Shown piece by piece: positions 40,226 through 54,561 of a stretch of DNA of 64,000 nucleotides. The position numbers were made by a program, and so were the translations under genes. This stretch comes from Rhizobium sp. ASV8. GTDB taxonomy: Bacteria; Pseudomonadota; Alphaproteobacteria; Rhizobiales; Rhizobiaceae. The stretch lies in NCBI RefSeq assembly GCF_016429255.1, contig NZ_JAELUG010000022.1:1-64000 (forward strand), read 5' to 3'. The notes below the pieces were generated by a model. It worked only from the letters and a program-made list of their open reading frames with translations, had not been told where the DNA came from and did no database searches. How positions within the stretch are numbered: position 1 is the stretch's first letter; each line of letters begins with the position of its first letter.

Positions 40226-40795
40226 TCAGTCCTTGGCGCGCTCGACGTAGGAATTGTCTTCCGTGGCGATGACGACGCGGGTGCCGGCGTTGATATGCGG
40301 CGGCACGAGAGTGCGGATGCCGTTCGACAGCATGGCAGGCTTGTAGGAGGAGGATGCCGTCTGGCCCTTGACGACCGGCTCGGTCTCGGTGATCTCAAGC
40401 GTGACGTGGCGCGGCAGTTCGAGCGCCAGCGGAATGCCTTCGTGGATCGACAGGATGCAGGTCATGCCTTCCTGCAGGTAGGCCTTCTGGTCGCCCATGG
40501 TGTCGACATCGACGACGACCTGGTCGTAGGTGGCCGGGTTCATGAAGTGGAAGCCCTCGCCGTCTTCATAGAGGTACTGGAAGTTCACGTCTTCGACGAA
40601 GGCGCGCTCGACCTGTTCGGTGGTGCGCCAACGCTCGGAGACCTTCACGCCGTCGACGATGCGGCGCATGTCGACCTGGGTAACCGGAGTACCCTTGCCC
40701 GGATGAAAGTTCTGAGCGGTGAGAACGACGTAGAGCTTGCCGTCGACGTCGAGAACGTTGCCCTTGCGGACCGAAGAGGCGATGACCTTGACCAT
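40226..40795 (-). CDS. efp: Elongation factor P
   Basis: A 189-residue translation factor that relieves ribosomes stalled at polyproline. Three beta-barrel domains are recognisable; the modified loop is FHPGKGTP with Lys34, the residue that receives beta-lysine from EpmA/EpmB. The C-terminal domain shows the EF-P signature near [18 protein letters not shown]. The start at 40795 follows AAGGAAG. It is divergent from epmA and epmB, which modify it, so this locus holds the factor and its two modification enzymes. Confidence 0.95.
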
Positions 40796-40946
40796 AAGAC
40801 TTCCTTGTAACGCTGCGCTTTGCGTCGTAGAGGGACTGTCTAAATGCTCTCCGAGACGCAGCAATTGTTTGCTTGGGGGCGCAACTACCCTAAATCAATG
40901 GAAATTGCCACCCCCAACGCGGCTTGCGCCCCGAAGAAAGCTAGGA

Positions 40947-42011
40947 ATGAAGCCAACGACGAGCAAAGCGTCCCCCTGGTGGACCCGCAATGTCCATGCG
41001 GACCGGCGGCCATTCCTGATCGGCCGGAATGCGATCCAGGCCGCGATGCGCGTGTTCTTTGCAAGCAACGATTTTATCGAGGTCGATACGGCAACGCTGC
41101 AGGTGTCGCCGGGCAACGAGGCGCATCTCCACGCTTTCGAGACCGAGGGGCTGACGACGGACGGCAAGGCATCGCCTCTCTACCTTCATACTTCGCCTGA
41201 ATTTGCCTGCAAGAAACTGCTTGCGGCCGGCGAGGAGCGCATTGCCTGCTTTGCCCACGTCTATCGCAATCGCGAGCGCGGGCCGCTGCACCATCCGGAA
41301 TTCACCATGCTGGAGTGGTATCGGGCGGGCGAGAGCTATGAGATGCTGATGGCCGATTGCTCAGCGCTCTTGGCGCTGGCGGCCGAGACGGTCGGCGCGA
41401 AGAAACTCATCTATCGCGGCGCCGAGATCGATCCGTTCCTGCAGCCGGAGCGGATCAGCGTCGCAGCCGCGTTTGAGCGCTATGCCGGCATCGACCTGTT
41501 TGCCTCCATCGGCCTCGATGGATCGACCGATCGCGAGCGATTGGCGGCCGATATGCGCCAGGCAGGCATTCGTTTTGCCGACGACGACCTCTGGCAGGAT
41601 CTCTTCAGCCGTGTGCTGGTCGAGAAGATCGAACCCAATCTCGGCTTCGGCCGCGCCACCATTCTCGACGAATATCCCGTTTCGGAGGCGGCGCTTGCCC
41701 GCCCGTCGGCAAGGGATCATCGCGTCGCCGAACGTTTCGAGCTTTATGCCTGCGGTGTCGAGCTTGCCAATGCTTTTGGCGAGCTCACCAATGCCAAGGA
41801 ACAGCGCCGCCGGTTCGAGATCGAAATGGCGGAAAAGCAGCGCGTCTACGGCGAGACCTATCCGCTGGATGAGGATTTCTTGCAGGCGCTGGCCCTGATG
41901 CCCGATGCAAGCGGCATCGCGCTCGGCTTCGACCGGCTCGTGATGCTGGCAACCGGTGCTTCGCGCATCGAGCAGGTGCTCTGGGCGCCCGTCGCGGAGT
42001 ATGGCGCATGA
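40947..42011 (+). CDS. epmA: EF-P beta-lysine ligase
   Basis: A 354-residue class II LysRS-like protein without the N-terminal anticodon-binding domain. Motif 2 is FAHVYRNRERGPLHHPEFTMLEWY; motif 3 is ASGIALGFDRLVMLATGA. It activates (R)-beta-lysine and attaches it to Lys34 of EF-P rather than to tRNA. The ATG at 40947 follows AAGAAAGCTAGGA. It overlaps epmB by 4 nt and is divergent from efp. Confidence 0.92.
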   Translation: MKPTTSKASPWWTRNVHADRRPFLIGRNAIQAAMRVFFASNDFIEVDTATLQVSPGNEAHLHAFETEGLTTDGKASPLYLHTSPEFACKKLLAAGEERIACFAHVYRNRERGPLHHPEFTMLEWYRAGESYEMLMADCSALLALAAETVGAKKLIYRGAEIDPFLQPERISVAAAFERYAGIDLFASIGLDGSTDRERLAADMRQAGIRFADDDLWQDLFSRVLVEKIEPNLGFGRATILDEYPVSEAALARPSARDHRVAERFELYACGVELANAFGELTNAKEQRRRFEIEMAEKQRVYGETYPLDEDFLQALALMPDASGIALGFDRLVMLATGASRIEQVLWAPVAEYGA

Positions 42012-43075
42012 ATTCGATGCGTCCGCTCCGCAATATCGGTGAGCTCGAGCGTGCCGGGTTGATCGATGCCGAGCAGGCGATGGCGCTCGAAGCTGTGGCG
42101 GAGCGCTATGCCGTCGCGCTGACGCCATCAGTCACGCGCTTGATCGACCCTGCGGATCCCGCCGATCCCATCGCCCGCCAATTCGTACCCGATGCGGCCG
42201 AGTTGCTGGTTACATCAGAGGAACGCGCCGATCCGATCGGCGATCACGCGCACAGCCCGGTCGAAGGCATCGTGCATCGCTATCCGGACCGCGTGCTGCT
42301 GAAGGCCGTGCATGTCTGCCCGGTCTATTGCCGGTTCTGCTTCCGCCGCGAAATGGTCGGGCCGCAGGGGCTCGGCACGCTTGACGGCGATGCGCTCGAT
42401 GGTGCTTTCGCCTATATCCGCGATCACAGGGAGATCTGGGAGGTCATCCTGACCGGTGGCGATCCGCTGGTTCTTTCGCCGAGGCGGCTGGAAGAGATTC
42501 TCAGGCAGCTTGCCGATATCGATCATGTGAAGATCGTTCGCTTCCATACGCGCATTCCCGTTGTCGATCCTTCCAAGGTCGATGCGGCATTGATCGCGGC
42601 GCTGAAGGCAAGCGGGAAGACTGTTTATGTCGCCCTCCATGCCAATCATCCGCGCGAGCTGACGGAGGAGGCCCGGGCTGCCTGCGCACGGCTGGTCGAT
42701 GCGGGCATCGTGCTGGTCAGCCAGTCGGTGCTGCTCAAGGGTGTCAACGACGACCCCGATGTATTGGCGGCGCTGATGAAGGCTTTTGTCGAAACGCGGG
42801 TAAAGCCCTATTATCTGCATCACCCCGATCTTGCCCCCGGCACCAGCCATTTCCGTCTTGGCATCGCGGAGGGACAGGCGATCGTGGGGGCGTTGCGCGG
42901 CCGGATCTCCGGTCTTTGTCAGCCGACTTATATCCTCGATATTCCAGGTGGTTACGGCAAGGCTGACATCGGCGGGAGTTCGGTTCGCCCGGTTGGCGAA
43001 GGTTGCTATTCCGTTTCGGATTATCGCGGCGGCGAGCACCGCTATCCGCCCGAGGGCCACGGCATAGTTCCTTAA
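42008..43075 (+). CDS. epmB: L-lysine 2,3-aminomutase (EF-P modification)
   Basis: A 355-residue radical SAM enzyme. The cluster motif CPVYCRFC gives Cys104, Cys108 and Cys111. The PLP-binding lysine is expected in the C-terminal third (the PGGYGK motif near residue 318). It converts L-alpha-lysine to (R)-beta-lysine, the substrate of EpmA. Lysine aminomutases of catabolism are longer; this length and the neighbours fit EpmB. Translation is coupled to epmA (ATGA overlap). No epmC hydroxylase gene is in the window. Confidence 0.92.
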   Translation: MNSMRPLRNIGELERAGLIDAEQAMALEAVAERYAVALTPSVTRLIDPADPADPIARQFVPDAAELLVTSEERADPIGDHAHSPVEGIVHRYPDRVLLKAVHVCPVYCRFCFRREMVGPQGLGTLDGDALDGAFAYIRDHREIWEVILTGGDPLVLSPRRLEEILRQLADIDHVKIVRFHTRIPVVDPSKVDAALIAALKASGKTVYVALHANHPRELTEEARAACARLVDAGIVLVSQSVLLKGVNDDPDVLAALMKAFVETRVKPYYLHHPDLAPGTSHFRLGIAEGQAIVGALRGRISGLCQPTYILDIPGGYGKADIGGSSVRPVGEGCYSVSDYRGGEHRYPPEGHGIVP

Positions 43076-43116
43076 ATCGGATTCGGTTTTGGGGAATTAT
43101 GCAGCGGATTTAAAGT

Positions 43117-43161
43117 GCTGCAGCGACCTTTGCGCGTCGCATGCGGCGCGCGGCGCTGTAG
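43117..43161. repeat. Short palindromic mosaic repeat F
   Basis: CTGCAGCGACCTTTGCGCGTCGC and GCGGCGCGCGGCGCTGTAG: same layout as D and E but with a different inner stem. Confidence 0.55.
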
Positions 43162-43516
43162 AACCGGCGCTTCCAATCTATACTTTTACTGACGCTATGA
43201 TTGTTATGAGATTTATCGAATAAAACGTGGCGGCGAGTTGGCGCGTTAACCTTCTTGCGCGCACCGTCTTTTCACAAAATCACCGACACATAATATTGTG
43301 ATTATTGAATATGTGTGTGCGGACGGCAGTTTGCATGGTTTATGTTTAGTAAATTTTTATCAAACAAATGATGAATATAGAATTGTTCTGCAAAGTATAA
43401 GTTGGTTGTATTTACCACGTCGATTAGCGGAATGTTCTATTTTGCCTGTTACTTCTTGGCGAAAATAAGACTGCGTAACCACGGTTATGCTTGCAATTGC
43501 CAGAAGGGACTAGACT
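43162..43516 (+). other. A+T-rich promoter region of the carrier-protein operon
   Basis: No gene. From about 43195 to 43500 the sequence is clearly more A+T-rich than its surroundings (for example TTTAGTAAATTTTTATCAAAC near 43347). AGAAGGGAC lies before the carrier protein ATG. Such stretches in rhizobia can be targets of silencers of the MucR/Ros type; no specific site is identified. Confidence 0.45.
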
Positions 43517-43768
43517 ATGAACAAGACGATTCGCGATTTGCTGGCCAAGTTCGGTGCGCTTCCCGTTGCTATCGATCAGATCGAAGACGATGCCGATCTC
43601 TATGCGACAGGATTGTCCTCATTCGCTTCCGTTCAGTTGATGCTCGGTATCGAAGAGGCATTCGACATCGAGTTTCCCGATAACCTGCTGAACCGCAAGT
43701 CCTTTGCCAGCATCGCCGCGATCGAAAGAACAGTCGGCATGATCCTGGACGGCAGAAAGGTCGCGTGA
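43517..43768 (+). CDS. Acyl carrier protein-like carrier of the amino acid:CP ligase system
   Basis: An 83-residue acidic helical protein. The phosphopantetheine site reads GLSSFASVQ with Ser35 as the modifiable residue; the usual Asp before it is replaced by Ser34. The rest (ADLYATG, IEEAFDIEFPDNLLNRKSF) follows the ACP fold. It is not the fatty-acid ACP: it heads a cluster with an amino acid:[carrier protein] ligase 1.2 kb downstream, and in such clusters the carrier receives a small amino acid on its pantetheine arm. It overlaps the next gene by one base (TGATG). Confidence 0.85.
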   Translation: MNKTIRDLLAKFGALPVAIDQIEDDADLYATGLSSFASVQLMLGIEEAFDIEFPDNLLNRKSFASIAAIERTVGMILDGRKVA

Positions 43769-44961
43769 TGAGTGTGGCGGTCGCTTTACTCGAGGTTGGG
43801 ACGGGCGAGGGAGCGGCGGTGCGCGCCGCCCGCGTCGCAGCGATCGCCAGCCAGCACGCCGATGCCGTCGATCTCGAGGGCCGGTTCCCGCGTGAAGCCG
43901 TCGACGCGATGCGCGCCGAAAAGCTGCTTTCCATCCAGATCCCCGTCGCGCTTGGCGGCGAGGGTGCGTCGATCACCGAGATCGCCGAGCTGTGCTCGAT
44001 CCTCGGTCAGGCCTGCGCGGCAAGCGCCATGGTTTTCGCCATGCACCACATCAAGCTTTCGAGCCTGGTCGAGCATGGCGCCGACAGCGACTGGCATCGC
44101 GAATTCATGCGCCGCATCGCTGGGGAACAGCTGCTGCTGGCCTCGGCCACGACCGAAGGCGGAATTGGTGGCAACCTGCGCAACAGTATTTGCGCCATCA
44201 AGGTCGAAGGCGACACTTGCTATCTCGAGAAGGATGCGACCGTCATTTCCTATGGCGCGCATGCCGATGCTATCCTGATCACCTCGCGCAGTCATGCTGA
44301 TGCTGCGTCTTCCGACCAGGTGCTGACCTGCTTCCTGAAAGACCAGTATGAGATCAAGCGCACAGTCGAGTGGAACACGCTCGGCATGCGCGGCACCTGC
44401 TCCGACGGCTTCCTCTTCAAGGGTGAGGCTCCGGCCACGCAGATCCTGCCGAAGCCGTTTGCCGAGATTGCCGCGCAATCGATGCTGGCAAGCTCGCATC
44501 TGCTCTGGAGCGGCGTCTGGTACGGCATAGCCGCCGATGCGGTTTCCCGCGCGCAGGCGTTCGTGCGGGCCGCTGCCCGCAAGTCTCCCGGTGCGCCACC
44601 GCCCGGCGCGCTGCGTCTCGCCGAAGCCTCCAGCATGCTGCAGATGGTGAAGTCCAATGTGGTTGCCGGGCTGAAGGCTTATGAAGAGGCGAAGCTCGAT
44701 GCCGATCGGCTGTCGTCAATGGCCTTTGCCGTGGCGATGAACAACGTCAAGATCGCATCATCCGAGACGATCCTGCCGATCATCAACCACGCGATGCTGA
44801 TCTGCGGCATCATGGGCTACAAGAACGGTACGCCCTACAGCCTCGGCCGCCACTTGCGCGACGCGCACTCGGCGCAATTGATGATCTCGAACGACCGCAT
44901 CCTTGGCAATACGTCGACGATGCTGCTCGTCCACAAACAAGACACCAGCCTGTTGGGGTAA
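43768..44961 (+). CDS. Acyl-CoA dehydrogenase-like flavoprotein acting with the carrier protein
   Basis: A 397-residue protein with the acyl-CoA dehydrogenase fold: N-terminal helical domain ([20 protein letters not shown]), middle beta domain ([18 protein letters not shown], where CoA dehydrogenases place flavin contacts) and C-terminal four-helix domain. Placed between a carrier protein and its amino acid ligase, it may oxidise a carrier-bound aminoacyl group, as dehydrogenases do in pyrrole-type pathways; this is inference. The ATG at 43768 shares a base with the carrier stop; a GTG three bases earlier is possible. Confidence 0.85.
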
Positions 44962-44966
44962 CCGCC

Positions 44967-45875
44967 ATGGATATGCAATCCTCGTTTCTCGACCGTCTTT
45001 TCGATTCCGGTCTCTTGATCGATACCGGCGTTGACGGCCTCTACGGCCGCAGCGGCCAGTTCGAAGACGTCATTTCGGCTTTCGAACGCCTGATCGACAA
45101 GTTCGGCGGTGCCGATGGCGCCGAGGCCATCCGCTTTCCGCCCGGCATGAACCGCGCTTTCTTCGAAACCAGCGGTTACATGAAGAGCTTCCCGCAGCTT
45201 GCCGGCACGGTGCACAGCTTCTGCGGCAACGAACTCGATCATATGAGCCTGTTGAAGTGCATGGAAGTCGGCGACGACTGGACGAAAGACCAGCAGGCTA
45301 CCGATATCGTGCTGACACCGGCTGCCTGCTATCCGCTCTATCCGACGGTCGCCAAGCGCGGCGCCATTTCGGAAGACGGCGCGCTCTACGACCTGCAGTC
45401 CTATTGCTTCCGTCATGAGCCCTCCAAGGACCCGGCGCGCCAGCAGCTCTTCCGCATGCGCGAATATGTCTGCATGGGCAGCGAAAAGCATGTGACGGAT
45501 TTTCGCCAGAGCTGGATGGATCGTGGTGTCGAGATGATGAAGGCCGTCGGCCTCGCTGTGACCATCGACGTCGCCAACGACCCCTTCTTCGGCCGCGCCG
45601 GCAAGATGCTCGCCAACAACCAGCGCGACCAGAACCTCAAGTTCGAGCTGCTGATTCCGATTACCTCCGTTGCCAAGCCGACCGCCTGCATGAGCTTCAA
45701 CTATCACCAGGATGCCTTCGGCACGAAGTGGGGCCTGAACTTTGCTGACGGCAGTGTCGTGCACACGGCTTGCGTCGGCTTCGGGCTGGAGCGCATTGCG
45801 TTGGCGCTCTTCCACACCCACGGTCTCGACGTCAAGGAATGGCCCGAGAGCGTGCGCAAGACGCTATGGGGCTGA
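44967..45875 (+). CDS. Amino acid:[carrier protein] ligase (SerRS-like)
   Basis: A 302-residue homologue of atypical archaeal seryl-tRNA synthetase catalytic domains that lacks a tRNA-binding arm. Class II motif 2 is [11 protein letters not shown] and motif 3 [12 protein letters not shown]. The three zinc ligands of the Bradyrhizobium enzyme (Cys131, Glu176, Cys279 as I recall them) correspond with a constant offset of ten to Cys121, Glu166 and Cys269 here. Characterised members activate Gly or Ala and load it onto a dedicated carrier protein instead of tRNA. The carrier gene is 1.2 kb upstream in the same cluster. Start ATG at 44967 after GGGGTAACC. Confidence 0.92.
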
Positions 45876-46843
45876 TCGCTTCCATGGTTTCAGTGTTTCA
45901 GGGACTGGATCCCGCCGCCTATAGGCCGCATGCGTTGCACGACAGCGAGCGCATGTGGCCCGAGACGAATTGCTATATCGATCTGTGGATCGAAGTGCTT
46001 TCGAACCTGAAGCTGCCGCCGGAAGCCATGCTGGGCTTCACGGTGGCCCAGGATTTCGAGGGCGACCAGTTCACCTTCTTCAAGGTGCCGCTCGAGGATC
46101 TGGAAGCGCTCTATGGCGTGCGCTGCACCGAGCTTGCGATCTACGACAAGGTTCAGAACCATGTCGCCGAGCAGGTCGGTCGCGGCCGGCTCTGCCTGGT
46201 GGAGATGGATTCCTATTTCATGCCCGATACGCAGGGCGTCGGCTATCGCCGCGAACACGGCAAGACGACCGTGGCGATCAACCGGCTCGACATGGAAGGG
46301 CGCACGCTCGACTACTTCCACAATGGCGGGTTCTTTCAACTGTCGGGCGAGGATTTCGACGGGCTGTTCCAGCTGCATCTGACGGATGAGGACCTGCCCT
46401 TCCTGCCTTACACGGAATTTGCCAAGTTTCCTGAGAAAGTGCCGGGCGAAGCCGCGATCCGTCAGGTCGCACGGCAGATCCTGTCCTTCCATTTCCGCCG
46501 TCGCCCGAACGCCAATCCTATCCGAGCCTTTGCTGAGGTTTTCCCGGCGCAGGTAGAGGCGGTCGCCGAAAGGCCCTTCGGCTTCTTCCATAAATATGCG
46601 TTCAACACGCTGCGTCAGCTCGGCGCCAATTTCGAACTTGCCGGCAGTCACTTCGATTGGCTTTCGGCCGATTTGTCCGATGCGGCCGGCGAGGCGCGCA
46701 AAATTTCCGAGATGGCGAAATCGGTGCAGTTCCAGCTTGCCCGCGCCATCACGCGCAAGAAATTCGAGCCGCTGCGGACAGCCCTTGATCCTGCCGCAGA
46801 TGCATGGGATGCCATGATGAGCGAACTCGAACGAAAGCTTTAA
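45866..46843 (+). CDS. DUF1839 family protein
   Basis: A protein of 325 residues (319 if translation starts at 45884). It begins [36 protein letters not shown], with the conserved acidic and Trp-rich start of DUF1839, followed by a mixed alpha/beta region with [14 protein letters not shown] and MDSYFMPDT. No catalytic role is established. The gene overlaps the ligase stop by 10 nt if the first ATG is used, showing tight coupling. In other rhizobia DUF1839 genes recur next to the ligase and carrier (from memory), so a role in accepting or transferring the carrier-bound amino acid is a fair guess only. Confidence 0.78.
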
Positions 46844-46920
46844 GCGGCTTCCGTTCGATCACGATACGGCTGGGTCATTTCTGAAAATATTGGGGCGGGG
46901 GTAATCCCTCGGAAAATGTC

Positions 46921-49389
46921 ATGGGCGGGCGCTTGGCGGATCTCGGCGGCGGAATGCGGCTGAGCGAAGGTTGGAATCTGGTGTTGACGGATGCAGGCGC
47001 CTGCAACTCGCCGTCCGATGTACCAATGATGTCCGGGCTCATTCCCGCGCCGGTGCCGGGCACGGTGGCGGAGGCACTGGAAAAGGCCGGACGTTTCGAC
47101 CGAACGAAGCCTCTACCCCTTAACGACCGAGATGCCTGGTACATCTGCCGTCTGGTGGATGCCAAGGCGGGAGAGGCGGTTTTGCGGCTGGAAGGGCTGG
47201 CGACGCTTTGCGACGTCTTCCTCAACGGCCAGAAAATCCTTGTGTCCGAAAGCATGTTCGAGGCCCATGACGTCGACGTCATTTTGCTTGGTGGCGACGA
47301 GCTGGCACTATGCTTCCGCGCGCTGGAGCCAAGGCTTTCCGAGCCAGGTCCGCGCGCCCGCTGGCGGCCGCAGATGATGACGCCGCAAGGCTTGCGGATG
47401 GTGCGCACGACGCTGCTCGGCCATATGCCCGGCTGGTGCCCGGAGGTTCAGGCCGTTGGCCCTTGGCGGCCGATTTGGCTTTTACGACCAGGCGCGCCTG
47501 TCATCCGTGATCTTTCCCTGCGGCCGGATCTGCTCGAGAACGGCGAAGGCAGGCTCTATGCTTCGCTTTCGATTGAAGGCGATGTCGAACATCTGGTGCT
47601 GCGGTGCGGAGAAGCCGAACAGGCTTTCGAGAAAGACGGGGCAGACCGTTATACCGCGATCCTCAGAATTCCGGATGTAACGCCCTGGTGGCCGCATACG
47701 CATGGCGCGCCACAGCTCTTCGATGTCACACTCATCCTCGATGGCGTCGAGCATGAGCTTGGGCAGACCGGTTTTCGCCGGCTATCGGTCGATCGCGGTG
47801 CCGGTGGGCAGGATTTCGCTGTGATCGTCAATGGCGAACGGATTTTCTGCCGCGGTGCGGTGTGGACGACAGCCGATATTGCGCGGTTGCCCGGTGGTCG
47901 CGAAGATTACGAACCCTGGCTAAGGCTTACGGCCGAGGCCGGCATGAACATGATCCGCATCGGCGGCACCATGGCCTATGAGACGGCGGAATTCTTCCGC
48001 CTCTGCGACGAACTTGGTCTGCTCGTCTGGCAGGATTTCATATTCGCCAATTTCGACTATCCGAAGAACGACAAGGCCTTCAACATTCATGTCGAGACCG
48101 AGGTTTCACAGTTTCTGAGCCGCTCGCGCCTCTCGCCCTCGCTGGCGGTTCTTTGCGGCGGCAGCGAAATCCACCAGCAGGCGGCGATGATGGGTCTGCC
48201 CGAACAGTTCTGGAAAAGTCCTGTTGTCGAGGAGATCATCCCGCCGCTGGTTCAGTCGCTGCGGCCGGATGTGCCTTATGTCGTCAATTCGCCCTCCGAT
48301 GGCCCGATGCCGTTTTCTTCGGATGTTGGCGTTACACATTATTACGGCGTCGGCGCCTACATGCGGCCGCTCGCCGATGCGCGTCGCACTGGTGTGCGCT
48401 TCGCGGCGGAGAGCCTGGCCTTCGCGCATGTGCCGCAATCAAGGACGCTCGGGCGCCATCTGCCCGTTCCCGCCGTTCATAGCCCGCTATGGAAAGAGCG
48501 TGTGCCGCGAGATCGCGGCGCATCCTGGGATTTCGAGGACGTGCGCGATCACTATCTTCAGGAGCTTTACGGCTTCGAGCCCAACCGCCTGCGGCGGGAA
48601 GACCCGGATCTCTATCTCAACCTTTCCCGAGCCGTGACCGGCGAAGTCGCCGAGGAGACCTATGCCGAGTGGCGGCGGCACGGTTCCGGCTGCAACGGAG
48701 CACTCGTCTGGACGCTGCAGGACCTGCTTCCCGGCGCCGGCTGGGGCGTGATCGACTCGACCGGGGAGCCAAAGCCGGTTTGGTATGCGCTTCGCCGTGC
48801 CTTCCGGCCCGTGCAGGTGCTATTGATGGACGAGGGCACGAATGGTCTCGACGTGCATATCATCAACGAAAGCGATGCGGCGCTCGACCTGACCGTCGAG
48901 GTTTCTTGCCTGCGCGACGGCCGTCAGGTTGTCGTCGGCGGTGGTCGCGATCTGGTCCTCGAAGCGCGCAGCAAGCAAAAGATAGCGTGCACGGATCTTT
49001 TCGGCGCTTTCTTCGATGCGACCTATGCCTTCCGCTTCGGGCCGCCGTCGCATGATGTGGCCGTGGCGCGTCTGACCGCGCCGGCGACCGGCGCGACGAT
49101 CGCCCATGCTTTTTACTTCCCGCTTGGCCGCACGAAGGCGTTTCATGATGCCGAGATCACGGCATTGGCCGTTCAGGAGGGCGAGGATTGGTTCCTCGAT
49201 CTAAGCACGGATCGGCTGGCGCAATCGGTTCAGATCGATCTGGAAGCCTACCGGGCCGAGGATGACTGGTTTCATCTGGCACCCGGTAGCCGGCGGCTTC
49301 GGCTGCACCGGCGCGAGGGTGTTCCAGCCGATGCCATTCCGATGGGCCAGGTCCGCACGGTCGGCGGCCGGCGGGTCGTCGAGATCTGA
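46921..49389 (+). CDS. Glycoside hydrolase family 2 protein (beta-mannosidase-like)
   Basis: An 822-residue protein with GH2 layout: N-terminal sugar-binding sandwich (to about 190, DAWYICRLVDAK, VFLNGQKI), immunoglobulin-like domain (to about 300) and a TIM barrel (about 300-600), then C-terminal beta domains. The acid/base is Glu416 in CGGSEIHQQ (Ser replaces the usual Asn before Glu) and the likely nucleophile Glu497 in RFAAESLAF. No signal peptide, so it should act in the cytosol. It follows DUF1839 by 77 nt on the same strand and may belong to the carrier-protein operon; it converges on the sugar ABC operon 21 nt away. Confidence 0.8.
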   Translation: MGGRLADLGGGMRLSEGWNLVLTDAGACNSPSDVPMMSGLIPAPVPGTVAEALEKAGRFDRTKPLPLNDRDAWYICRLVDAKAGEAVLRLEGLATLCDVFLNGQKILVSESMFEAHDVDVILLGGDELALCFRALEPRLSEPGPRARWRPQMMTPQGLRMVRTTLLGHMPGWCPEVQAVGPWRPIWLLRPGAPVIRDLSLRPDLLENGEGRLYASLSIEGDVEHLVLRCGEAEQAFEKDGADRYTAILRIPDVTPWWPHTHGAPQLFDVTLILDGVEHELGQTGFRRLSVDRGAGGQDFAVIVNGERIFCRGAVWTTADIARLPGGREDYEPWLRLTAEAGMNMIRIGGTMAYETAEFFRLCDELGLLVWQDFIFANFDYPKNDKAFNIHVETEVSQFLSRSRLSPSLAVLCGGSEIHQQAAMMGLPEQFWKSPVVEEIIPPLVQSLRPDVPYVVNSPSDGPMPFSSDVGVTHYYGVGAYMRPLADARRTGVRFAAESLAFAHVPQSRTLGRHLPVPAVHSPLWKERVPRDRGASWDFEDVRDHYLQELYGFEPNRLRREDPDLYLNLSRAVTGEVAEETYAEWRRHGSGCNGALVWTLQDLLPGAGWGVIDSTGEPKPVWYALRRAFRPVQVLLMDEGTNGLDVHIINESDAALDLTVEVSCLRDGRQVVVGGGRDLVLEARSKQKIACTDLFGAFFDATYAFRFGPPSHDVAVARLTAPATGATIAHAFYFPLGRTKAFHDAEITALAVQEGEDWFLDLSTDRLAQSVQIDLEAYRAEDDWFHLAPGSRRLRLHRREGVPADAIPMGQVRTVGGRRVVEI

Positions 49390-49410: not shown

Positions 49411-50490
49411 TTACAACGCCGCGCCGTCCGGCCCGAACAGGTGGCAGCGTTCCGGATCAATGCGGATGTTGACCGTTTCTCCGGCGCGGATGGCCTGCTG
49501 ATCCTCCAGCGCGACCGTCAGCGTCTGGCCGCCGTGCAAGGTGGCATAGAGAATGGTCTGACCACCCAGATGCTCCACAAGATCGACGCGCGCGCTGCCG
49601 AGAGCGACACCGCGATCGCCGACATTGAGATGCTCGGGACGTGCGCCGAGGGTCACGGCTTCTCCCGGCTGGATGCCACCCAGCCGACGCGGCAGGCGAA
49701 CGGTCTGGCCGGCGAGATCGATGACGGCGGATCCGTCGTCGGAGCCGACGATCTTCGCCTCGAGGAAATTCATTTTCGGCGAACCGATGAAGCCGGCAAC
49801 GAACTTGTTCTTCGGCTTGTTGTAGAGGTCAAGGGGAGCGCCGACCTGCTCGATCTTGCCGCCGTTGAGCACGACAATCTTGTCGGCCATGGTCATGGCT
49901 TCCGTCTGATCGTGCGTAACATAGATCATCGTATTGCCGAGCCGCTGGTGCAGGCGGGCGATCTCGACGCGCATCTGCACGCGCAGTTCGGCATCGAGGT
50001 TCGACAGCGGCTCGTCGAAGAGGAAGATGTTGGGCTCGCGCACGATGGCGCGGCCGATCGCGACGCGCTGGCGCTGGCCACCGGAGAGCTGCTTCGGCTT
50101 GCGCTGCAGCAACTGGGTGATTTGCAGCACCTCGGCCGCCTTTTCGACACGCGGCTGGATCTCGTGCTTCTTCATGCCGGCGGTTTCAAGACCGAAGGCG
50201 AGGTTCTTGTAGACACTCATATGCGGATAGAGCGCATAGGACTGGAAGACCATGGCGATGCCGCGCTTGGAGGCGGGGACATCGTTCATGCGGCTACCGT
50301 CGAGATAGAGCCCACCGCCCGAAATCGGCTCAAGACCGGCGATCATGCGCAGGAGCGTGGACTTGCCGCAGCCCGATGGGCCGACGAAAACGGTGAACTC
50401 TCCCGGCTCGATTTCCAGGTCGATGCCGTGAACCACCTGAAGCTCGCCATAGCGCTTGATAACTTTCTGCAGCGATACGCTCGTCGCCAT
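49411..50490 (-). CDS. Sugar ABC transporter ATP-binding protein (UgpC/MalK type)
   Basis: A 359-residue ATPase. Walker A GPSGCGKST, signature LSGGQRQR, Walker B IFLFDEPLSNLDAEL, and a C-terminal regulatory TOBE region (from about 240). MalK-type ATPases energise CUT1 carbohydrate importers. The ATG at 50490 follows AAGGAGGAA. It is the last gene of the operon, 44 nt after the oxidoreductase gene, and serves the two permeases encoded upstream. Confidence 0.92.
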   Translation of the reverse strand: MATSVSLQKVIKRYGELQVVHGIDLEIEPGEFTVFVGPSGCGKSTLLRMIAGLEPISGGGLYLDGSRMNDVPASKRGIAMVFQSYALYPHMSVYKNLAFGLETAGMKKHEIQPRVEKAAEVLQITQLLQRKPKQLSGGQRQRVAIGRAIVREPNIFLFDEPLSNLDAELRVQMRVEIARLHQRLGNTMIYVTHDQTEAMTMADKIVVLNGGKIEQVGAPLDLYNKPKNKFVAGFIGSPKMNFLEAKIVGSDDGSAVIDLAGQTVRLPRRLGGIQPGEAVTLGARPEHLNVGDRGVALGSARVDLVEHLGGQTILYATLHGGQTLTVALEDQQAIRAGETVNIRIDPERCHLFGPDGAAL

Positions 50491-50534
50491 GGGCGCTTCC
50501 TCCTTGTTGGTTCTGATGGCTCGCGGCGCAACGT

Positions 50535-51605
50535 TCATGCCGGCCTCCAGCTTTTGTATTTTGCGCTTTCCGGCCCGACAGGGAAGCGGACTTCGGTGCG
50601 CGTTTCAGACGATTCATAAAGTGCCGTGACCAGTTCCAGGGCCTGACGGGCATCTGCTGTGGTTACCGGCAGCGGGCCGCCCGATACCAGGGCCTCGTGG
50701 AAGAGCTTCATCTGCGTGTTGAAGCGGATCGGGATCGGTGACCAGTCGGCGAGCAACGCATCGATCTTGGCTGCGATCTCGTCATTGGCCGGAACGATCT
50801 TCCAGGGATCCTGGCCGGGGCTATAGGGCTCGTGATTGCTTTCGATCAGGACGTTTTCGAAGGCAAGGCGCAGACGGCTGATCTGTTCCTGCGAGCCGAG
50901 CGTGGCGCTGATGGTGGCGAGCGCGCCGTTTTCCATCAGCAGGCTGGCGCTGGCACAATCCTCGACTTCGATATCGTTGACGCGGGTGGCGACGCGGCCG
51001 AAGAGGCCCGCGATCGGCCCCATCAAATAGGTCAGCATGTCGTGCAGGTGGATGGAATGCGTCATCAGCACGCCGCCGAGTTCCGTTTCCCACTTGCCGC
51101 GCCAGGGGACGGCATAATAGTCGGCGCCGCGCACCCAATGCGTCTCGGAGGTCGCGACATAGGGCTTGCCGGCGATGCCTGCATCGATGATGCGCTTGGC
51201 CTTCTGGATGCCGTCGCCGTAGCGATACTGGAAGATCGGCATCAGCCGCCCCTTGGAGGTCTTCTCGGCTGCGATGACGGCATCGACATCGGCGAGCGAT
51301 CCCACCAGCGGCTTCTCGCAGACCACATGCTTTCCGGCTGATAGCGCCTGCATGATCAGCTGGAAATGCGAGCCGGGCGGGGTGCAGATGTCGATAATGT
51401 CGATATCGGGCATGTTGAGGACTTCGGAGAAATCCTTGACGCGTTTCTCTATGCCGAATTCGTCGCCGACGGCATTCAGGCGTTCCTCGTTGAGATCGCA
51501 GAGGACGGCAACTTCGTAGCGATCTGAATGCGGCAGATAGCCTTCGGTAATGTGGGAGCGGCCGATACCGAGGCCGATGATCGCGACTTTCTTGATGTCG
51601 GACAT
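50535..51605 (-). CDS. Gfo/Idh/MocA family oxidoreductase 1
   Basis: A 356-residue NAD(P)-dependent sugar or cyclitol dehydrogenase. The N-terminal Rossmann domain has VAIIGLGIGRSH, followed by DICTPPGSHF and CEKPLVGSLAD (EKP, the substrate-proximal Lys). The C-terminal alpha/beta domain carries HSIHLHDML as the presumed catalytic histidine region. It sits in the sugar ABC operon, 7 nt after oxidoreductase 2, so the imported sugar is probably oxidised in the cytosol. The substrate is unknown. Confidence 0.88.
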   Translation of the reverse strand: MSDIKKVAIIGLGIGRSHITEGYLPHSDRYEVAVLCDLNEERLNAVGDEFGIEKRVKDFSEVLNMPDIDIIDICTPPGSHFQLIMQALSAGKHVVCEKPLVGSLADVDAVIAAEKTSKGRLMPIFQYRYGDGIQKAKRIIDAGIAGKPYVATSETHWVRGADYYAVPWRGKWETELGGVLMTHSIHLHDMLTYLMGPIAGLFGRVATRVNDIEVEDCASASLLMENGALATISATLGSQEQISRLRLAFENVLIESNHEPYSPGQDPWKIVPANDEIAAKIDALLADWSPIPIRFNTQMKLFHEALVSGGPLPVTTADARQALELVTALYESSETRTEVRFPVGPESAKYKSWRPA

Positions 51606-51612
51606 AACGCAA

Positions 51613-52638
51613 TTACCTCTGAATGTTCTTGAGCGACGTCGCTTCGGCGAGCGCCTGCGCCTTCAGCGCCAGTTCCATCGCCTTGAAGCAATGTTCCTGG
51701 CCCATCGCCGTTTCGGTGCGGTCCCTTATGTCGGCGGCAAGCTGGCGGCCATAGGGCAAGTCGAAGCCGGTGCAGTCGATATGCTGCATGCCTTTACGAT
51801 CGGTGAGGAAGAGGTGATCGGTGCCGGGCCGACCGGCAACGTCGATATATTTGCGCAGCTCGATCGTCCCCTCGGTGCCGACGATGAAGAGGCGGCCGTC
51901 GCCCCAGGTGGAAAGACCATCCGGCGTGAACCAGTCGACGCGGACATAGCCTGTGACATCGGGCGTGCGCAGGTGGAAATCGCCATAGTCTTGCAGGCCG
52001 GGGGTGTCAGGATTAGCCCGGTTGGAGACCGTAGCCGACAGCACCTCGGCTTCGAGCGAATCGGCGAAGAACAGAAACTGTTCGCATTGATGCGAGGCGA
52101 TGTCGGTGATGATGCCGCCATAGCGCTTGCGGTCGAAGAACCAGTCCGGCCGGGTCGGCTTGCGCAGCCGGTGTGGCCCAAGGCCCGTGGTGTGGATGAC
52201 CTTGCCGATGGCGCCTGATTTCACCAGCTCGCCGGCCTTGACGGTCGACGCCGTCTCGAAATGCTCGGAATAGAGAATGGAGACGATGCGCTTGGTCTCG
52301 GCCTGCACCTTTCGGACGTCTGCGAGCTGATCCAGCGTCACCATGCCGGGCTTGTCGAGCATCACGTCCTTGCCGTGGCGCATGGCCTCGATGGCAAGGC
52401 TTGACCGTTCGCTGGAGATCGCGGCGCTGACGATCAGCGCGATGGAGTTGTCCTCCAGGATTTCGCGCTTGTCGGTGACTCGTCTTGCCTGCGGGAAGCG
52501 TCCGGCGAAGACGGTGGCGAGGTCGTCTTCCTCAGCGTGGAAGGCGACCAGCTCCGCGCCGGCGCGCAGCATGACGTTGACCTGGCCGTAGATATGATCG
52601 TGATTGAGGCCGATGGCGGCAAAGCGCAGCGCGCTCAT
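51613..52638 (-). CDS. Gfo/Idh/MocA family oxidoreductase 2
   Basis: A 341-residue protein of the same superfamily. The Rossmann start is divergent (FAAIGLNHDHIYGQV; the glycine motif is reduced) with LDKPGMVTLDQL at the EKP position (DKP). The C-terminal domain has IITDIASHQCEQFLFF. Such members often act on keto-sugars or dimethylated cyclitols. The ATG at 52638 follows AAAGGAAA. Two paralogous oxidoreductases in one operon suggest successive oxidation and reduction, as in inosose or 3-keto-glycoside pathways; this is inference. Confidence 0.85.
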   Translation of the reverse strand: MSALRFAAIGLNHDHIYGQVNVMLRAGAELVAFHAEEDDLATVFAGRFPQARRVTDKREILEDNSIALIVSAAISSERSSLAIEAMRHGKDVMLDKPGMVTLDQLADVRKVQAETKRIVSILYSEHFETASTVKAGELVKSGAIGKVIHTTGLGPHRLRKPTRPDWFFDRKRYGGIITDIASHQCEQFLFFADSLEAEVLSATVSNRANPDTPGLQDYGDFHLRTPDVTGYVRVDWFTPDGLSTWGDGRLFIVGTEGTIELRKYIDVAGRPGTDHLFLTDRKGMQHIDCTGFDLPYGRQLAADIRDRTETAMGQEHCFKAMELALKAQALAEATSLKNIQR

Positions 52639-52711
52639 GCGACATTTCCTTTCAATGGGTTTCTCAATATGCGGTCCCAAGCCTTGGGAGTTCGGGACCG
52701 CGCGGTTCGTA

Positions 52712-53596
52712 TCAGCGTTTGAGACCTGCCGTGGCGATACCGTCGATCAGCAGCCTCTGGAAGAAGAGGAAGATCAGGAAGACCGGGATCAGCGACAGGC
52801 TCGACATGGCGAACAGGCTGCTCCAGTCGGAGCTTCCGGTGGAGTCCACGAAGGACCGCAGGCCGAGCTGCACCGTGTAGGTATTGATGTCGGAGAGGTA
52901 GATCAGCGGCCCGAAGAAATCGTCCCAGGTCCAGATGAAGGAGAAGATGGCGGCCGTCGCCATGACCGGCAGCGACAAAGGCAGCATGATGCGCCAATAG
53001 ATGCGCCACGGGCTGCAGCCATCCATCATGGCAGCCTCGTCCAGCTCGCGCGGGATGCCGCGGAAGAACTGCACCATCAGGAAGATGAAGAAGGCGTCGA
53101 CCGCAAGGAATTTCGGCACGACCAGCGGCAGCATGGTCTTCACCCAGCCGAGTTTCAGGAAGAGGATATATTGCGGGATCAGCGTGACGTGATAGGGCAG
53201 CATCAGCGTGCCGAGCATCAGCGCGAACCAGAAATTCTTGCCCCAGAAACTCAGCCGGGCGAAGGCATAGGCCGCCAGTGAGCAGGAAATGACGTTGCCG
53301 ATGACCGAAAGCACGGCGATGACGGCCGAATTCCAGACGAAGGTTCCGAAAGTAACCTGACCGCCGAACCAGCCGCGGGCATAGGCGCTGAAGTCGAATC
53401 GGGTTGGGATCAGCGATGCCGTGCCGAAAATCTCGTTCTGGTCCTTGATCGAACCGGAGAGCATCCACAGCAGCGGATAGAGCATCACGATCGATGCGGC
53501 GATAAGGGCGATGTGGATGAGGACGGAGAGGAACCACGGGTGCTCGCGCGGCGGCTTCATGTCCTCGGCAAAATGGGTGAGCTTCGCGTCAGTCAT
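52712..53596 (-). CDS. Sugar ABC transporter permease 2 (MalG type)
   Basis: A 294-residue inner-membrane protein with six helices. The EAA loop reads ELDEAAMMDGCSPWRIYWRIMLPLS before the last two helices, the docking site for the ATPase. The start at 53596 overlaps the preceding permease gene by 8 nt. Together with permease 1 it forms the channel of a CUT1 importer. Confidence 0.92.
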   Translation of the reverse strand: MTDAKLTHFAEDMKPPREHPWFLSVLIHIALIAASIVMLYPLLWMLSGSIKDQNEIFGTASLIPTRFDFSAYARGWFGGQVTFGTFVWNSAVIAVLSVIGNVISCSLAAYAFARLSFWGKNFWFALMLGTLMLPYHVTLIPQYILFLKLGWVKTMLPLVVPKFLAVDAFFIFLMVQFFRGIPRELDEAAMMDGCSPWRIYWRIMLPLSLPVMATAAIFSFIWTWDDFFGPLIYLSDINTYTVQLGLRSFVDSTGSSDWSSLFAMSSLSLIPVFLIFLFFQRLLIDGIATAGLKR

Positions 53597-54557
53597 CGTA
53601 ATGAACCCAATAACGAGCGGAGAGGAAGGAGAAGGTGGTGAAGATGGCGATGATGATCACCAGGACCCAGGCGAGCGCGGCGGCATAACCCATGCGGAAA
53701 TAACCGAAGGCTTCCTGGTAGAGGTAGAGCGTGTAGAACAGCGTCGAATCGATTGGTCCGCCGGTGCCGGAGGAAATCACATAGGCCGGTGTGAAGGCCT
53801 TGAAGGCATCGATCGTCTGGACCACGGCGTTGAAGAAGATCACCGGCGTCAAAAGCGGCAGGGTGATCTTGAAGAAGATCCGCACTTTCGAGGCGCCGTC
53901 GAGGCTCGCGGCCTCATAGAGATCAGTCGGGATCTGGCGCAGGCCGGCCAGGAAGATGATCATCGGCGAGCCGAACTGCCAAATGGCAAGGATCACCAGC
54001 GTGTAGAGCGAATAGTCCGGATTGGAGATCCAGCTCGGGCCGTTGATGCCGAAAACATACCAGAGCAGCGTGTTGACGATGCCGTCGGCGTCGAAGATCT
54101 GCCGCCAGAGCACGGCGATCGCGACGCTGGAGCCGAGCAGCGACGGCAGGTAAAAGATGGCGCGATAGACCGGCAGGCCCTTGATGCCGCGGTTCAGCAG
54201 CAGCGCAACGAGCAGCGCAAAGGCCAGCTTCAGTGGCACGGAACAGACGACATAGAACAGCGTCACCTTCAGCGACGACAGGAATTTGTCGTCTGCGGTG
54301 GCGATGCGGACATAGTTGTCCAGTCCCACAAGGTTTGGTGACTGCAGCAGATTGTAATCGGTGAAAGAAAGGTAGAGCGAGGCAATTGCCGGCCCCAGCG
54401 TCAAGCCGAAGAAGCCGATGAACCACGGCAGGAGAAAGAGGTATCCAGGCGCGTTGCGCGCGAAAGCGCCCGGCGCCTTGTAGGCGGTTTCCACGCGCAA
54501 CGGCGCGCGCGCACCGACGGCCAAGCCGCCGGCAACGCTCTTGCTGTTTGTACCCAC
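53589..54557 (-). CDS. Sugar ABC transporter permease 1 (MalF type)
   Basis: A 322-residue permease with six helices and the EAA loop DLYEAASLDGASKVRIFFKITLPLL. It starts with GTG at 54557 (GAGG eight bases upstream), 4 nt after the binding-protein gene, and overlaps permease 2. The N-terminal 30 residues are polar and cytoplasmic. Confidence 0.9.
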   Translation of the reverse strand: MGTNSKSVAGGLAVGARAPLRVETAYKAPGAFARNAPGYLFLLPWFIGFFGLTLGPAIASLYLSFTDYNLLQSPNLVGLDNYVRIATADDKFLSSLKVTLFYVVCSVPLKLAFALLVALLLNRGIKGLPVYRAIFYLPSLLGSSVAIAVLWRQIFDADGIVNTLLWYVFGINGPSWISNPDYSLYTLVILAIWQFGSPMIIFLAGLRQIPTDLYEAASLDGASKVRIFFKITLPLLTPVIFFNAVVQTIDAFKAFTPAYVISSGTGGPIDSTLFYTLYLYQEAFGYFRMGYAAALAWVLVIIIAIFTTFSFLSARYWVHYDD

Positions 54558-54561
54558 GGTA

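What the first reader, a model, noticed from the sequence alone, without database searches (positions are those of the whole stretch)
43517..49389. Carrier protein, dehydrogenase, SerRS-like amino acid:CP ligase, DUF1839 and GH2 glycosidase in one cluster
Seen: a five-gene same-strand run with overlaps or small gaps; the carrier has Ser35 for pantetheine; the ligase keeps class II motifs and three ligands (Cys121, Glu166, Cys269) matching those of the characterised Bradyrhizobium amino acid:[carrier protein] ligase at a constant offset. Known: such ligases load Gly or Ala on a carrier protein instead of tRNA, with unknown cellular purpose. Inference: the flavoprotein oxidises the carrier-bound aminoacyl group, DUF1839 accepts or transfers it, and the glycosidase handles a sugar partner, so the cluster may make an aminoacyl-sugar or small signalling metabolite.
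Basis: partly seen in the sequence, partly recalled or inferred. Interest (0 to 1): 0.7.

Follow-up and report, generated by a model that had tools for sequence, protein, structure and literature searches.

The report
Aminoacyl transfer cassette for surface glycans
Five neighbouring genes in a Rhizobium-type bacterium look like a small assembly line that loads an amino acid onto a carrier protein and passes it to an amino sugar, probably one that ends up in a surface polysaccharide, which would give a purpose to a kind of enzyme whose role has been an open question since 2010.

Summary
The cluster is real: carrier protein, acyl-CoA-dehydrogenase-like flavoprotein, SerRS-like amino acid:CP ligase, DUF1839 and GH2 at 43517-49389. 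It is one co-inherited cassette: of 398 proteobacterial genomes 16 have DUF1839, and in all 16 the five genes are contiguous in one order. This neighbourhood, with the prediction that an amino acid is joined to a surface amino sugar, was printed in 2010 (Iyer et al., note in proof). Added here: (1) the predicted DUF1839 structure matches, over both domains, AziU3/U2, CcbD and CtaG; CcbD joins a CP-bound amino acid to an amino sugar through a Cys-bound intermediate. (2) In Burkholderiaceae with two DUF1839 copies, the cassette copy lost that Cys and the second kept it (4 of 4 read in full; probably one event). (3) A tandem alpha/beta hydrolase is in all 16 genomes and 1 of the other 382; polysaccharide-assembly genes lie beside it or the cassette in 11 of 16, in the window's genome on another contig. 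(4) The ligase tree splits into a clade with DUF1839 and the clade of the crystallised Bradyrhizobium enzyme, without it. Best reading: lincosamide-synthetase-like aminoacylation of a surface-glycan precursor. Acceptor, amino acid and the flavoprotein's reaction are inferred.

The parts
43517..43768 (+). stand-alone carrier protein, 83 aa, phosphopantetheine Ser35
   Evidence: PF00550 and NF005480; Ser35 in 75 of 75 distinct homologues
43768..44961 (+). acyl-CoA-dehydrogenase-fold flavoprotein, 397 aa, without the usual catalytic Glu; start overlaps the CP stop
   Evidence: Pfam N and C domains over cut-off, middle domain under it; Ile373 at the MCAD/SCAD Glu position in 110 of 111, Val in 1 (placed from the alignment)
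44967..45875 (+). SerRS-like amino acid:[carrier protein] ligase, 302 aa
   Evidence: NF005479 515.5 bits; PDB 4h2w E 1.1e-97; clade with DUF1839 in the ligase tree
45866..46843 (+). DUF1839 protein, 325 aa: predicted papain-like plus helical two-domain carrier-dependent amide synthetase, nucleophile Cys36
   Evidence: PF08893; AlphaFold2 model pTM 0.80; CcbD/AziU3/CtaG matches
46921..49389 (+). GH2 beta-mannosidase-type glycosidase, 822 aa, both catalytic Glu (416, 497) kept, no signal peptide seen
   Evidence: PDB beta-mannosidases, best E 1.4e-80 with profile A3; E416, E497 in 99 of 99; hydropathy
43076..43516 (+). A+T-rich gap upstream of the cassette, likely promoter region (inferred)
   Evidence: sequence read; one sigma-70-like match at 43271-43299 on the + strand; 3 such matches in 6.5 kb against 1.6 (sd 1.4) in shuffles

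Best explanation
The cassette is a stand-alone aminoacyl-transfer machine that works like lincosamide synthetase. Step 1: the SerRS-like ligase activates a small amino acid (Gly or Ala in the studied relatives; recalled) with ATP and loads it on the pantetheine of the carrier protein. Step 2 (unclear): the flavoprotein, which lacks the dehydrogenase Glu, modifies the carrier-bound aminoacyl group, perhaps by oxygenation, or acts on the sugar. Step 3: DUF1839 takes the aminoacyl group onto Cys36 and hands it to the amino group of an amino sugar, forming an amide. Step 4: the acceptor is a cytoplasmic precursor of a surface polysaccharide or oligosaccharide, exported by the flippase or Wzc/Wza-type machinery encoded beside the cassette or beside its partner hydrolase; the GH2 enzyme trims or quality-controls this glycan and the tandem Cys-type hydrolase does a second acyl-transfer or editing step. 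Shown: gene content, co-inheritance, conserved residues, predicted fold of DUF1839. Inferred: all reactions, the amine acceptor, the order of steps.
For: Co-inheritance: DUF1839 in 16 of 398 genomes, ligase over cut-off in 28, all 16 inside the 28 (Fisher 2e-21); five genes contiguous, same order, in 16 of 16, and all five called in 77 of 80 named loci (the other three explained in the report). Mechanism: full-length fold match of DUF1839 to AziU3/U2 (Z 17.4, 17.2), CcbD (Z 17.1-16.5) and CtaG (Z 16.5-15.1), next row Z 7.3; CcbD moves CP-tethered proline via a Cys thioester to the amino group of a thiooctose (PMC12945683, passages). Cys36 is kept in the readable copies except where a second copy has it. 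Glycan link: tandem hydrolase in 16 of 16 DUF1839 genomes and 1 of 382 others; flippase and glycosyltransferases next to it in the window's own genome and directly downstream of the cassette in L069 and others; polysaccharide genes near cassette or hydrolase in 11 of 16 genomes. Control: the hydrolase is found in 8 of 16 stretches around the cassette, 0 of 20 other stretches, 0 of 12 ligase loci without DUF1839 (Fisher 3e-5).
Against: No chemistry is known for any member with DUF1839 from what I could read. No amino-sugar biosynthesis gene was seen as a constant neighbour. In G197, G265, G028 and G143 I found the hydrolase but no other polysaccharide gene nearby (not every gene there was scanned), and G262 has only weak signs. 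In the window itself the downstream neighbours are a sugar ABC transporter and oxidoreductases, not polysaccharide genes. The cassette is patchy: 3 of 13 sampled genomes of the same family outside the genus have it, and 5 of 200 Burkholderiales have DUF1839, so it is accessory. The DUF1839 model has weak stretches (pLDDT under 50 at 1-5 and 60-72), identity to CcbD is 11-13%, and its catalytic His is not settled (His131 or His152). G322 has carrier and hydrolase but no DUF1839, so part of the system can stand without it.
Confidence: 0.55

Rival explanations
1. The cassette makes a free small molecule, an aminoacyl-sugar or pseudo-dipeptide of the lincosamide kind, exported on its own; the polysaccharide genes are neighbours by habit.
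For: CcbD, AziU3/U2 and CtaG all belong to small-molecule pathways (AziU and CtaG from PDB titles and recall). In L136 and L137 an MFS transporter lies nearby, and in these two loci no polysaccharide gene was found.
Against: The hydrolase/flippase/glycosyltransferase block recurs, including a flippase-hydrolase fusion in 31 of 80 named loci, and Wzc/Wza/ManC/WcaJ-type genes in Burkholderiaceae.
Confidence: 0.22
2. DUF1839 is a hydrolase: a thioesterase that edits the carrier, or a cell-wall glycan/peptide hydrolase, as suggested from gene context in 2023.
For: Papain-like fold assignment and the suggestion of acyl-CoA-dependent glycan processing at the cell wall (PMC10318531, passages).
Against: No signal peptide or membrane segment seen in the window's protein (hydropathy); the helical second domain and best matches are carrier-dependent synthetases, not proteases; DUF1839 was found only in genomes with the loading ligase in the 398-genome sample.
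Confidence: 0.12
3. The tandem alpha/beta hydrolase, whose second domain carries a GxCSG elbow, is the real transferase; DUF1839 modifies or checks the aminoacyl group.
For: Cys elbow G-x-C-S-G in 69 of 72 C-terminal domains by pattern (69 of the 72 sequences are distinct); in G322 the hydrolase stands with carrier and an amino acid adenylation enzyme without DUF1839.
Against: It is on another contig in 4 of 16 genomes and often on the other strand, and its nearest folds are esterases and lipases, with an ACP thioesterase (1tht) further down.
Confidence: 0.15

Closest known systems
Conserved neighbourhood of the Agrobacterium aa:CP ligase (Atu2574 region), Iyer et al. 2010, PMC2922099 note in proof
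   Same: Same kinds of genes: ACP, Rossmann/redox enzyme, conserved uncharacterised protein, glycosidase, liposaccharide genes; same general prediction of an amide bond to a cell-surface amino sugar
Lincosamide synthetase (CcbC/LmbC, CcbZ-CP/LmbN-CP, CcbD/LmbD)
   Same: Activating enzyme, carrier protein and cysteine-protease-like condensing enzyme that joins amino acid and amino sugar
   Different: Activation by a SerRS-like ligase instead of an A domain; extra flavoprotein and GH2; probable surface-glycan context; 11-13% identity to CcbD
Bradyrhizobium aa:CP ligase 1 (Bll0957; PDB 3mey, 4h2w)
   Same: Homologous ligase over the whole length, E 1e-97, same conserved residues
   Different: Belongs to the clade without DUF1839 and GH2; different neighbours
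BtrH (butirosin acyl-ACP:aminoglycoside acyltransferase)
   Same: Papain-like, carrier to aminoglycoside acyl transfer (PMC10318531 passage)
   Different: DUF1839 does not match the BtrH_N Pfam model even at E 10
DltA/DltC and AlmE/AlmF aminoacylation of surface polymers
   Same: Carrier-dependent aminoacylation of a surface molecule (PMC12930378 passages)
   Different: Different ligase and transferase families; esters (for Dlt recalled) rather than the amide proposed here

Membership tests
amino acid:[carrier protein] ligase (NF005479) | score over the curated cut-off | tested here: met
   515.5 bits against 357
amino acid:[carrier protein] ligase (NF005479) | class II core with Cys/Glu/Cys ligands, no tRNA-binding domain | tested here: met
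   C121, E166, C269 in 113 of 113; 302 aa, aligning to residues 312-506 of the 527-residue type-2 SerRS 3w3s
amino acid:[carrier protein] ligase (NF005479) | loads an amino acid on the neighbouring carrier | not testable with these tools
   needs an assay
CcbD/LmbD-type carrier-dependent amide synthetases | papain-like plus helical two-domain fold | tested here: met
   278-287 aligned residues of 325, rmsd 3.8-4.0, Z 16.5-17.4 for AziU3/U2 and CcbD, on a predicted model of pTM 0.80
CcbD/LmbD-type carrier-dependent amide synthetases | nucleophilic Cys | tested here: met
   Cys36 in the window and in 99 of 104 distinct homologues; two of the five others were called short and read on as ETNCY/QTNCY, three are cassette copies with a Cys-bearing paralogue
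CcbD/LmbD-type carrier-dependent amide synthetases | Cys-His-Glu triad in that order | tested here: inconclusive
   His131 and His152 both 104 of 104, Thr134 100 of 104; PMC10318531 reads C(T/S)H with the His displaced; model coordinates not available to measure
CcbD/LmbD-type carrier-dependent amide synthetases | transfers a carrier-bound acyl group to an amine | not testable with these tools
   needs an assay
BtrH family (Pfam BtrH_N) | match to the Pfam model | tested here: not met
   only PF08893 listed at E up to 10 for 3 of 3 DUF1839 proteins scanned
acyl-CoA dehydrogenase | fold and FAD domains | tested here: met
   PF02771 and PF00441 over cut-off, PF02770 under it
acyl-CoA dehydrogenase | catalytic Glu at the MCAD or IVD position | tested here: not met
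   Ile373 in 110 of 111 and Val in 1; Ser 97, Ala 10, Cys 2, Thr 2 at 243 of 111. The Glu positions are recalled; the IVD one was placed from a recalled IVD sequence
GH2 beta-mannosidase type | acid/base and nucleophile Glu | tested here: met
   E416, E497 in 99 of 99, aligned with Glu residues of 2je8; that those are its catalytic pair is recalled
GH2 beta-mannosidase type | Asn before the acid/base Glu | tested here: not met
   Ser415 in 98 of 99, Asn in 1
exosortase A-associated hydrolases (TIGR03100, TIGR03101), for the partner hydrolase | score over cut-off | tested here: not met
   76 against 168 and 67 against 203 bits for the window genome's tandem hydrolase

The most novel reading that the evidence does not exclude
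A Gram-negative counterpart of teichoic-acid alanylation built from translation parts: a SerRS-derived ligase and a CcbD-like synthetase put an oxidised (for example N-oxygenated) glycyl or alanyl group by an amide bond on an amino sugar of a capsule or exopolysaccharide in rhizobia, Azospirillum and Burkholderiaceae. In some Burkholderiaceae the synthetase works as a pair of an active and a Cys-less DUF1839, like the AziU3/U2 pair.
Probability: 0.3. Interest if true: 0.8.

Novelty: new variant of a known kind. Interest (0 to 1): 0.6.

Why it matters
[quoted passage not shown] A likely mechanism for DUF1839, a defined six-gene set and a glycan context make that question testable with a few purified proteins and one deletion strain. 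It would also show that a tRNA synthetase relative has been recruited to decorate bacterial surfaces, in plant symbionts among others.

Tried and rejected
Transfer of function from the Bradyrhizobium ligase: rejected, it is in the other clade with other neighbours. Canonical alpha,beta-dehydrogenation by the flavoprotein: unlikely, no catalytic Glu; the profile's best PDB matches mix dehydrogenases with DnmZ and another FAD oxidoreductase (3m9v) and a nitrososynthase (3mxl), so no clear side. Link to EF-P modification by the adjacent EpmA/EpmB-like genes: regional only; near the cassette in 72 of 80 named loci but not annotated in the stretches shown of two Azospirillum, one Mycetohabitans and one Caballeronia record. 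BtrH family by sequence: no match; BtrH has no row in the PDB lists, which says nothing either way. Sequence search of DUF1839 against PDB gave only a chance-level match, E 0.23. Tandem hydrolase fold: general esterase-like alpha/beta hydrolases, not decisive. Bradyrhizobium-type c8 protein as a substitute transferase: looks GNAT-like by eye, PF00583 only at E 0.0037, under its cut-off, in one of three members scanned. Promoter-like sites 3 against 1.6 (sd 1.4) and terminator-like sites 11 against 6.6 (sd 2.6) in shuffles: not used. Literature: searches and 110 of the held library. DUF1839 is in one paper only, PMC10318531, which does not name CcbD, LmbD, CtaG or AziU, and the lincosamide review does not name DUF1839; other libraries and subscription papers were not searched, and Mocibob 2010 and 2013 were not held. 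Supplements were not read. Of the papers named here I saw passages only, except section 17 of PMC2922099 and section 12 of PMC9437257. Rows dropped: the 16 genomes with ligase-like matches under the cut-off were not counted as ligases; six of their loci (L157-L162) were fetched, mapped once (L160 gave no line) and not pursued. L170 was left out of the tree for lack of a called ligase ORF, though tblastn finds it. Two plasmid records besides Cupriavidus show two DUF1839 places (NZ_CP016290, NZ_CP032341); one place of the first was read and has the Cys (L207), the others were not read.
Full report
What is there. The five genes are as described, with small corrections to two starts: the flavoprotein most likely begins at ATG 43768 and DUF1839 at ATG 45866, so that carrier and flavoprotein overlap by one base and ligase and DUF1839 by ten. 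Family matches are strong for ligase and DUF1839 and clear for the other three. The carrier has Ser35 (75 of 75 distinct homologues), the ligase C121, E166 and C269 (113 of 113). No signal peptide or membrane segment stands out in the window's five proteins (hydropathy only), so the work is probably cytoplasmic.

One inherited unit. The same 398 proteobacterial genomes were searched for the ligase model and for DUF1839. The ligase is over its cut-off in 28 and DUF1839 occurs in 16, all within the 28 (Fisher 2e-21). Gene maps show carrier, flavoprotein, ligase, DUF1839 and GH2 contiguous, in the same order and orientation, in 16 of 16 (window, 14 loci, L184). In the 12 ligase genomes without DUF1839, the stretches fetched (14-20 kb) show no GH2 homologue, and a flavoprotein stands next to the ligase in 12 of 12 (the second gene call, 84, missed it in L154). 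Of 80 named close relatives, 77 have all five genes called; L020 and L080 lie at contig ends and L077 has GH2 split over two frames. Pairwise distances of the five proteins over 22 loci correlate at 0.83-0.95; relatedness of the hosts adds to this, so it is only supporting. A maximum-likelihood ligase tree of 34 sequences puts the 22 with DUF1839 on one side of a branch supported 100/100 and the 12 without on the other. The crystallised Bll0957 ligase is nearly identical to a member of the second group (L148; 705 bits over the whole length). Two further Burkholderiales genomes (L170, L171) and five plasmid records (L163-L167: Azospirillum twice, Mycetohabitans, Cupriavidus, Caballeronia) repeat the cassette; in L170 the flavoprotein was not called but tblastn finds it in place. 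The cassette is accessory: it is in 3 of 13 sampled genomes of the same family outside the genus, and DUF1839 is in 5 of 200 Burkholderiales.

What DUF1839 is. A 2023 survey placed DUF1839 among papain-like folds with a C(T/S)H site and guessed at glycan processing (PMC10318531, passages). I modelled it from 61 sequences (mean pLDDT 78.6, pTM 0.80; residues 1-5 and 60-72 under 50). It has a papain-like half and a helical half. Against the PDB, Foldseek finds 19 chains at E <= 0.001, all of AziU3/U2, CtaG and CcbD; VIA-align gives these Z 15.1-17.4 over 272-287 residues, and the next row, a designed helical protein, has Z 7.3. CcbD and its homologue LmbD catalyse amide formation between a carrier-tethered amino acid and an amino sugar; the acyl group goes first to a catalytic Cys and is then attacked by the sugar's amino group, and the carrier is bound by a set of arginines, 312, 316 and 324 being critical (review PMC12945683, passages). 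DUF1839 keeps Cys36, and near its C-terminus R293 in 104 of 104, R297 in 100 of 104 and K285 in 97 of 104; that these form a carrier-docking patch is inference. Which residue is the catalytic His is open: His131 and His152 are both invariant.

A natural test of Cys36. Some Burkholderiaceae have two DUF1839 genes. In G328, G255, Cupriavidus metallidurans CH34 and Cupriavidus sp. EM10, the copy inside the cassette has Gln, Arg, Arg and Arg where Cys36 should be, and the second copy, beside ManC-like genes, has Cys (4 of 4). In C. campinensis the second copy has Cys and the cassette copy was cut off by the end of the stretch. The single-copy loci that I could read keep the Cys, among them Burkholderia multivorans and B. 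cenocepacia (L170 was too short). The two-copy state is probably one event, since three of the four cluster in the ligase tree (EM10 was not in it), so it counts once. It suggests that the Cys is needed once per genome. The AziU3/U2 entries, a complex of two proteins, offer a parallel by title only.

The glycan link. A protein of about 540-640 residues with two alpha/beta hydrolase domains follows GH2 in many loci. Searched with the window genome's own copy, full-length matches occur in 17 of 398 genomes: all 16 with DUF1839 and G322; four more genomes have partial matches (Fisher 1e-27). It is within 11 kb of the ligase in 11 of the 16, 21 kb away in G324, and on another contig in G000, G107, G191 and G255. 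Its domains resemble the exosortase A-associated hydrolases 1 and 2 but stay under their cut-offs; the second carries GxCSG in 69 of 72 by pattern and in 61 of 72 no GxSxG was found in the first (69 of the 72 are distinct). In the window's genome it lies on contig C756, over 18 kb from either contig end, beside a flippase (PF13440), a GT2 and a GT4 glycosyltransferase and a 78-residue AsnC-domain protein. In Rhizobium sp. BK376 (L069) that same block follows GH2 directly, and in 31 of 80 named loci flippase and hydrolase are one protein of about 1093 residues next to the cassette. So the window's lineage seems to have had the block moved away (inference); 28 of the 80 named loci share the window's downstream arrangement. 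Counting either location, polysaccharide assembly genes are beside the cassette or the hydrolase in 11 of 16 genomes (G000, G043, G253, G107, G307, G191, G382, G249, G255, G324, G328; for G382 only a glycosyltransferase), with weak signs in G262 and none seen in G197, G265, G028 and G143, where not every gene was scanned. As a control, tblastn with the hydrolase hits 8 of 16 cassette stretches (mostly 20 kb), 0 of 20 other 20-kb stretches, placed by hand at spaced positions in nine cassette-bearing genomes, and 0 of 12 ligase loci without DUF1839 (Fisher 3e-5). The window's own stretch is among the 8 without a hit. The other markers in that control were partly taken from cassette loci; only the hydrolase, flippase, GT2 and GT4 queries, from C756, are free of that.

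A telling exception. G322, the one genome with the full tandem hydrolase but no DUF1839, has an amino acid adenylation enzyme (TIGR01733, 346 bits, cut-off 317) and then a carrier 58% identical to a Burkholderiaceae cassette carrier directly before the hydrolase, near a Wzc homologue. The activating enzyme seems exchangeable while carrier, hydrolase and polysaccharide setting remain.

The other two enzymes. The flavoprotein has Ile (110 of 111) or Val where MCAD and SCAD carry Glu, and no acid at the IVD position (these positions are recalled, the IVD one from a recalled sequence). Invariant His93, His244 and Trp202 are candidates. A flavin oxygenase role fits, but dehydrogenation with another base is not excluded. 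GH2 keeps both catalytic Glu (99 of 99) but has Ser for the Asn before the acid/base (98 of 99), which may mean an unusual substituent at C2 of its substrate, for example an amino group; this is inference.

Prior work. Iyer and colleagues wrote in 2010, in a note in proof, that the ligase is linked to ACP, a redox enzyme, a conserved protein (Atu2574), a glycosidase and liposaccharide genes, and predicted amide ligation of an amino acid to a cell-surface sugar, with the redox enzyme modifying the aminoacyl group, probably by monooxygenation (PMC2922099, section 17 read). That Atu2574 is a DUF1839 protein is my reading of its described position. The present work agrees and adds fold-based mechanism, the Cys natural test, counts with controls, the tandem hydrolase and the clade split. 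In Bradyrhizobium diazoefficiens the other-clade ligase and flavoprotein (bll0957, bll0958) are listed with a fold change of 3.0 each in a phaR mutant (PMC10888616, table passage), so that pair is expressed.

Verdict. The finding is real and the core idea stands in changed form: a carrier-based aminoacyl-to-amino-sugar system, probably for a surface glycan. It is a new variant of a known kind; the chemistry is untested.

Noticed in passing
window 40226-43075: EF-P, an EpmA-like (both named by eye) and an EpmB-like radical SAM gene lie directly upstream, so two synthetase-derived modification systems are neighbours; the EpmA/EpmB pair is near the cassette in 72 of 80 named loci.
   Followed up: partly
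L178 7014-10809: Amino acid adenylation enzyme, carrier and tandem hydrolase in a row near Wzc, without the SerRS-like ligase or DUF1839: apparent replacement of the activating enzyme.
   Followed up: partly
L061 15834-19112 and 30 other named loci: Flippase and tandem hydrolase fused in one protein of about 1093 residues next to the cassette in Rhizobium leguminosarum-type genomes.
   Followed up: partly
L077 11939-14001: GH2 gene of Rhizobium altiplani read in two frames: a broken gene or an assembly error.
   Followed up: no
L207 9886-11886: Decayed-looking cassette on a Rhizobium leguminosarum plasmid: part of the ligase, whole DUF1839 and the first 165 residues of GH2, with a transposase gene nearby.
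   Followed up: no
L145-L150, L152-L156: Ligases of the other clade have other neighbours: a possibly GNAT-like protein in Bradyrhizobium-type loci, an AMP-binding enzyme, an 81-85-residue protein and an SDR in L152-L154, a Cys/Met-metabolism enzyme in L155/L156 with a homoserine succinyltransferase in L156.
   Followed up: partly
window 49411-55848: A minus-strand sugar ABC transporter with two oxidoreductases (functions by eye) follows the cassette in the window and in 28 of 80 named loci, in place of the flippase/hydrolase block.
   Followed up: no
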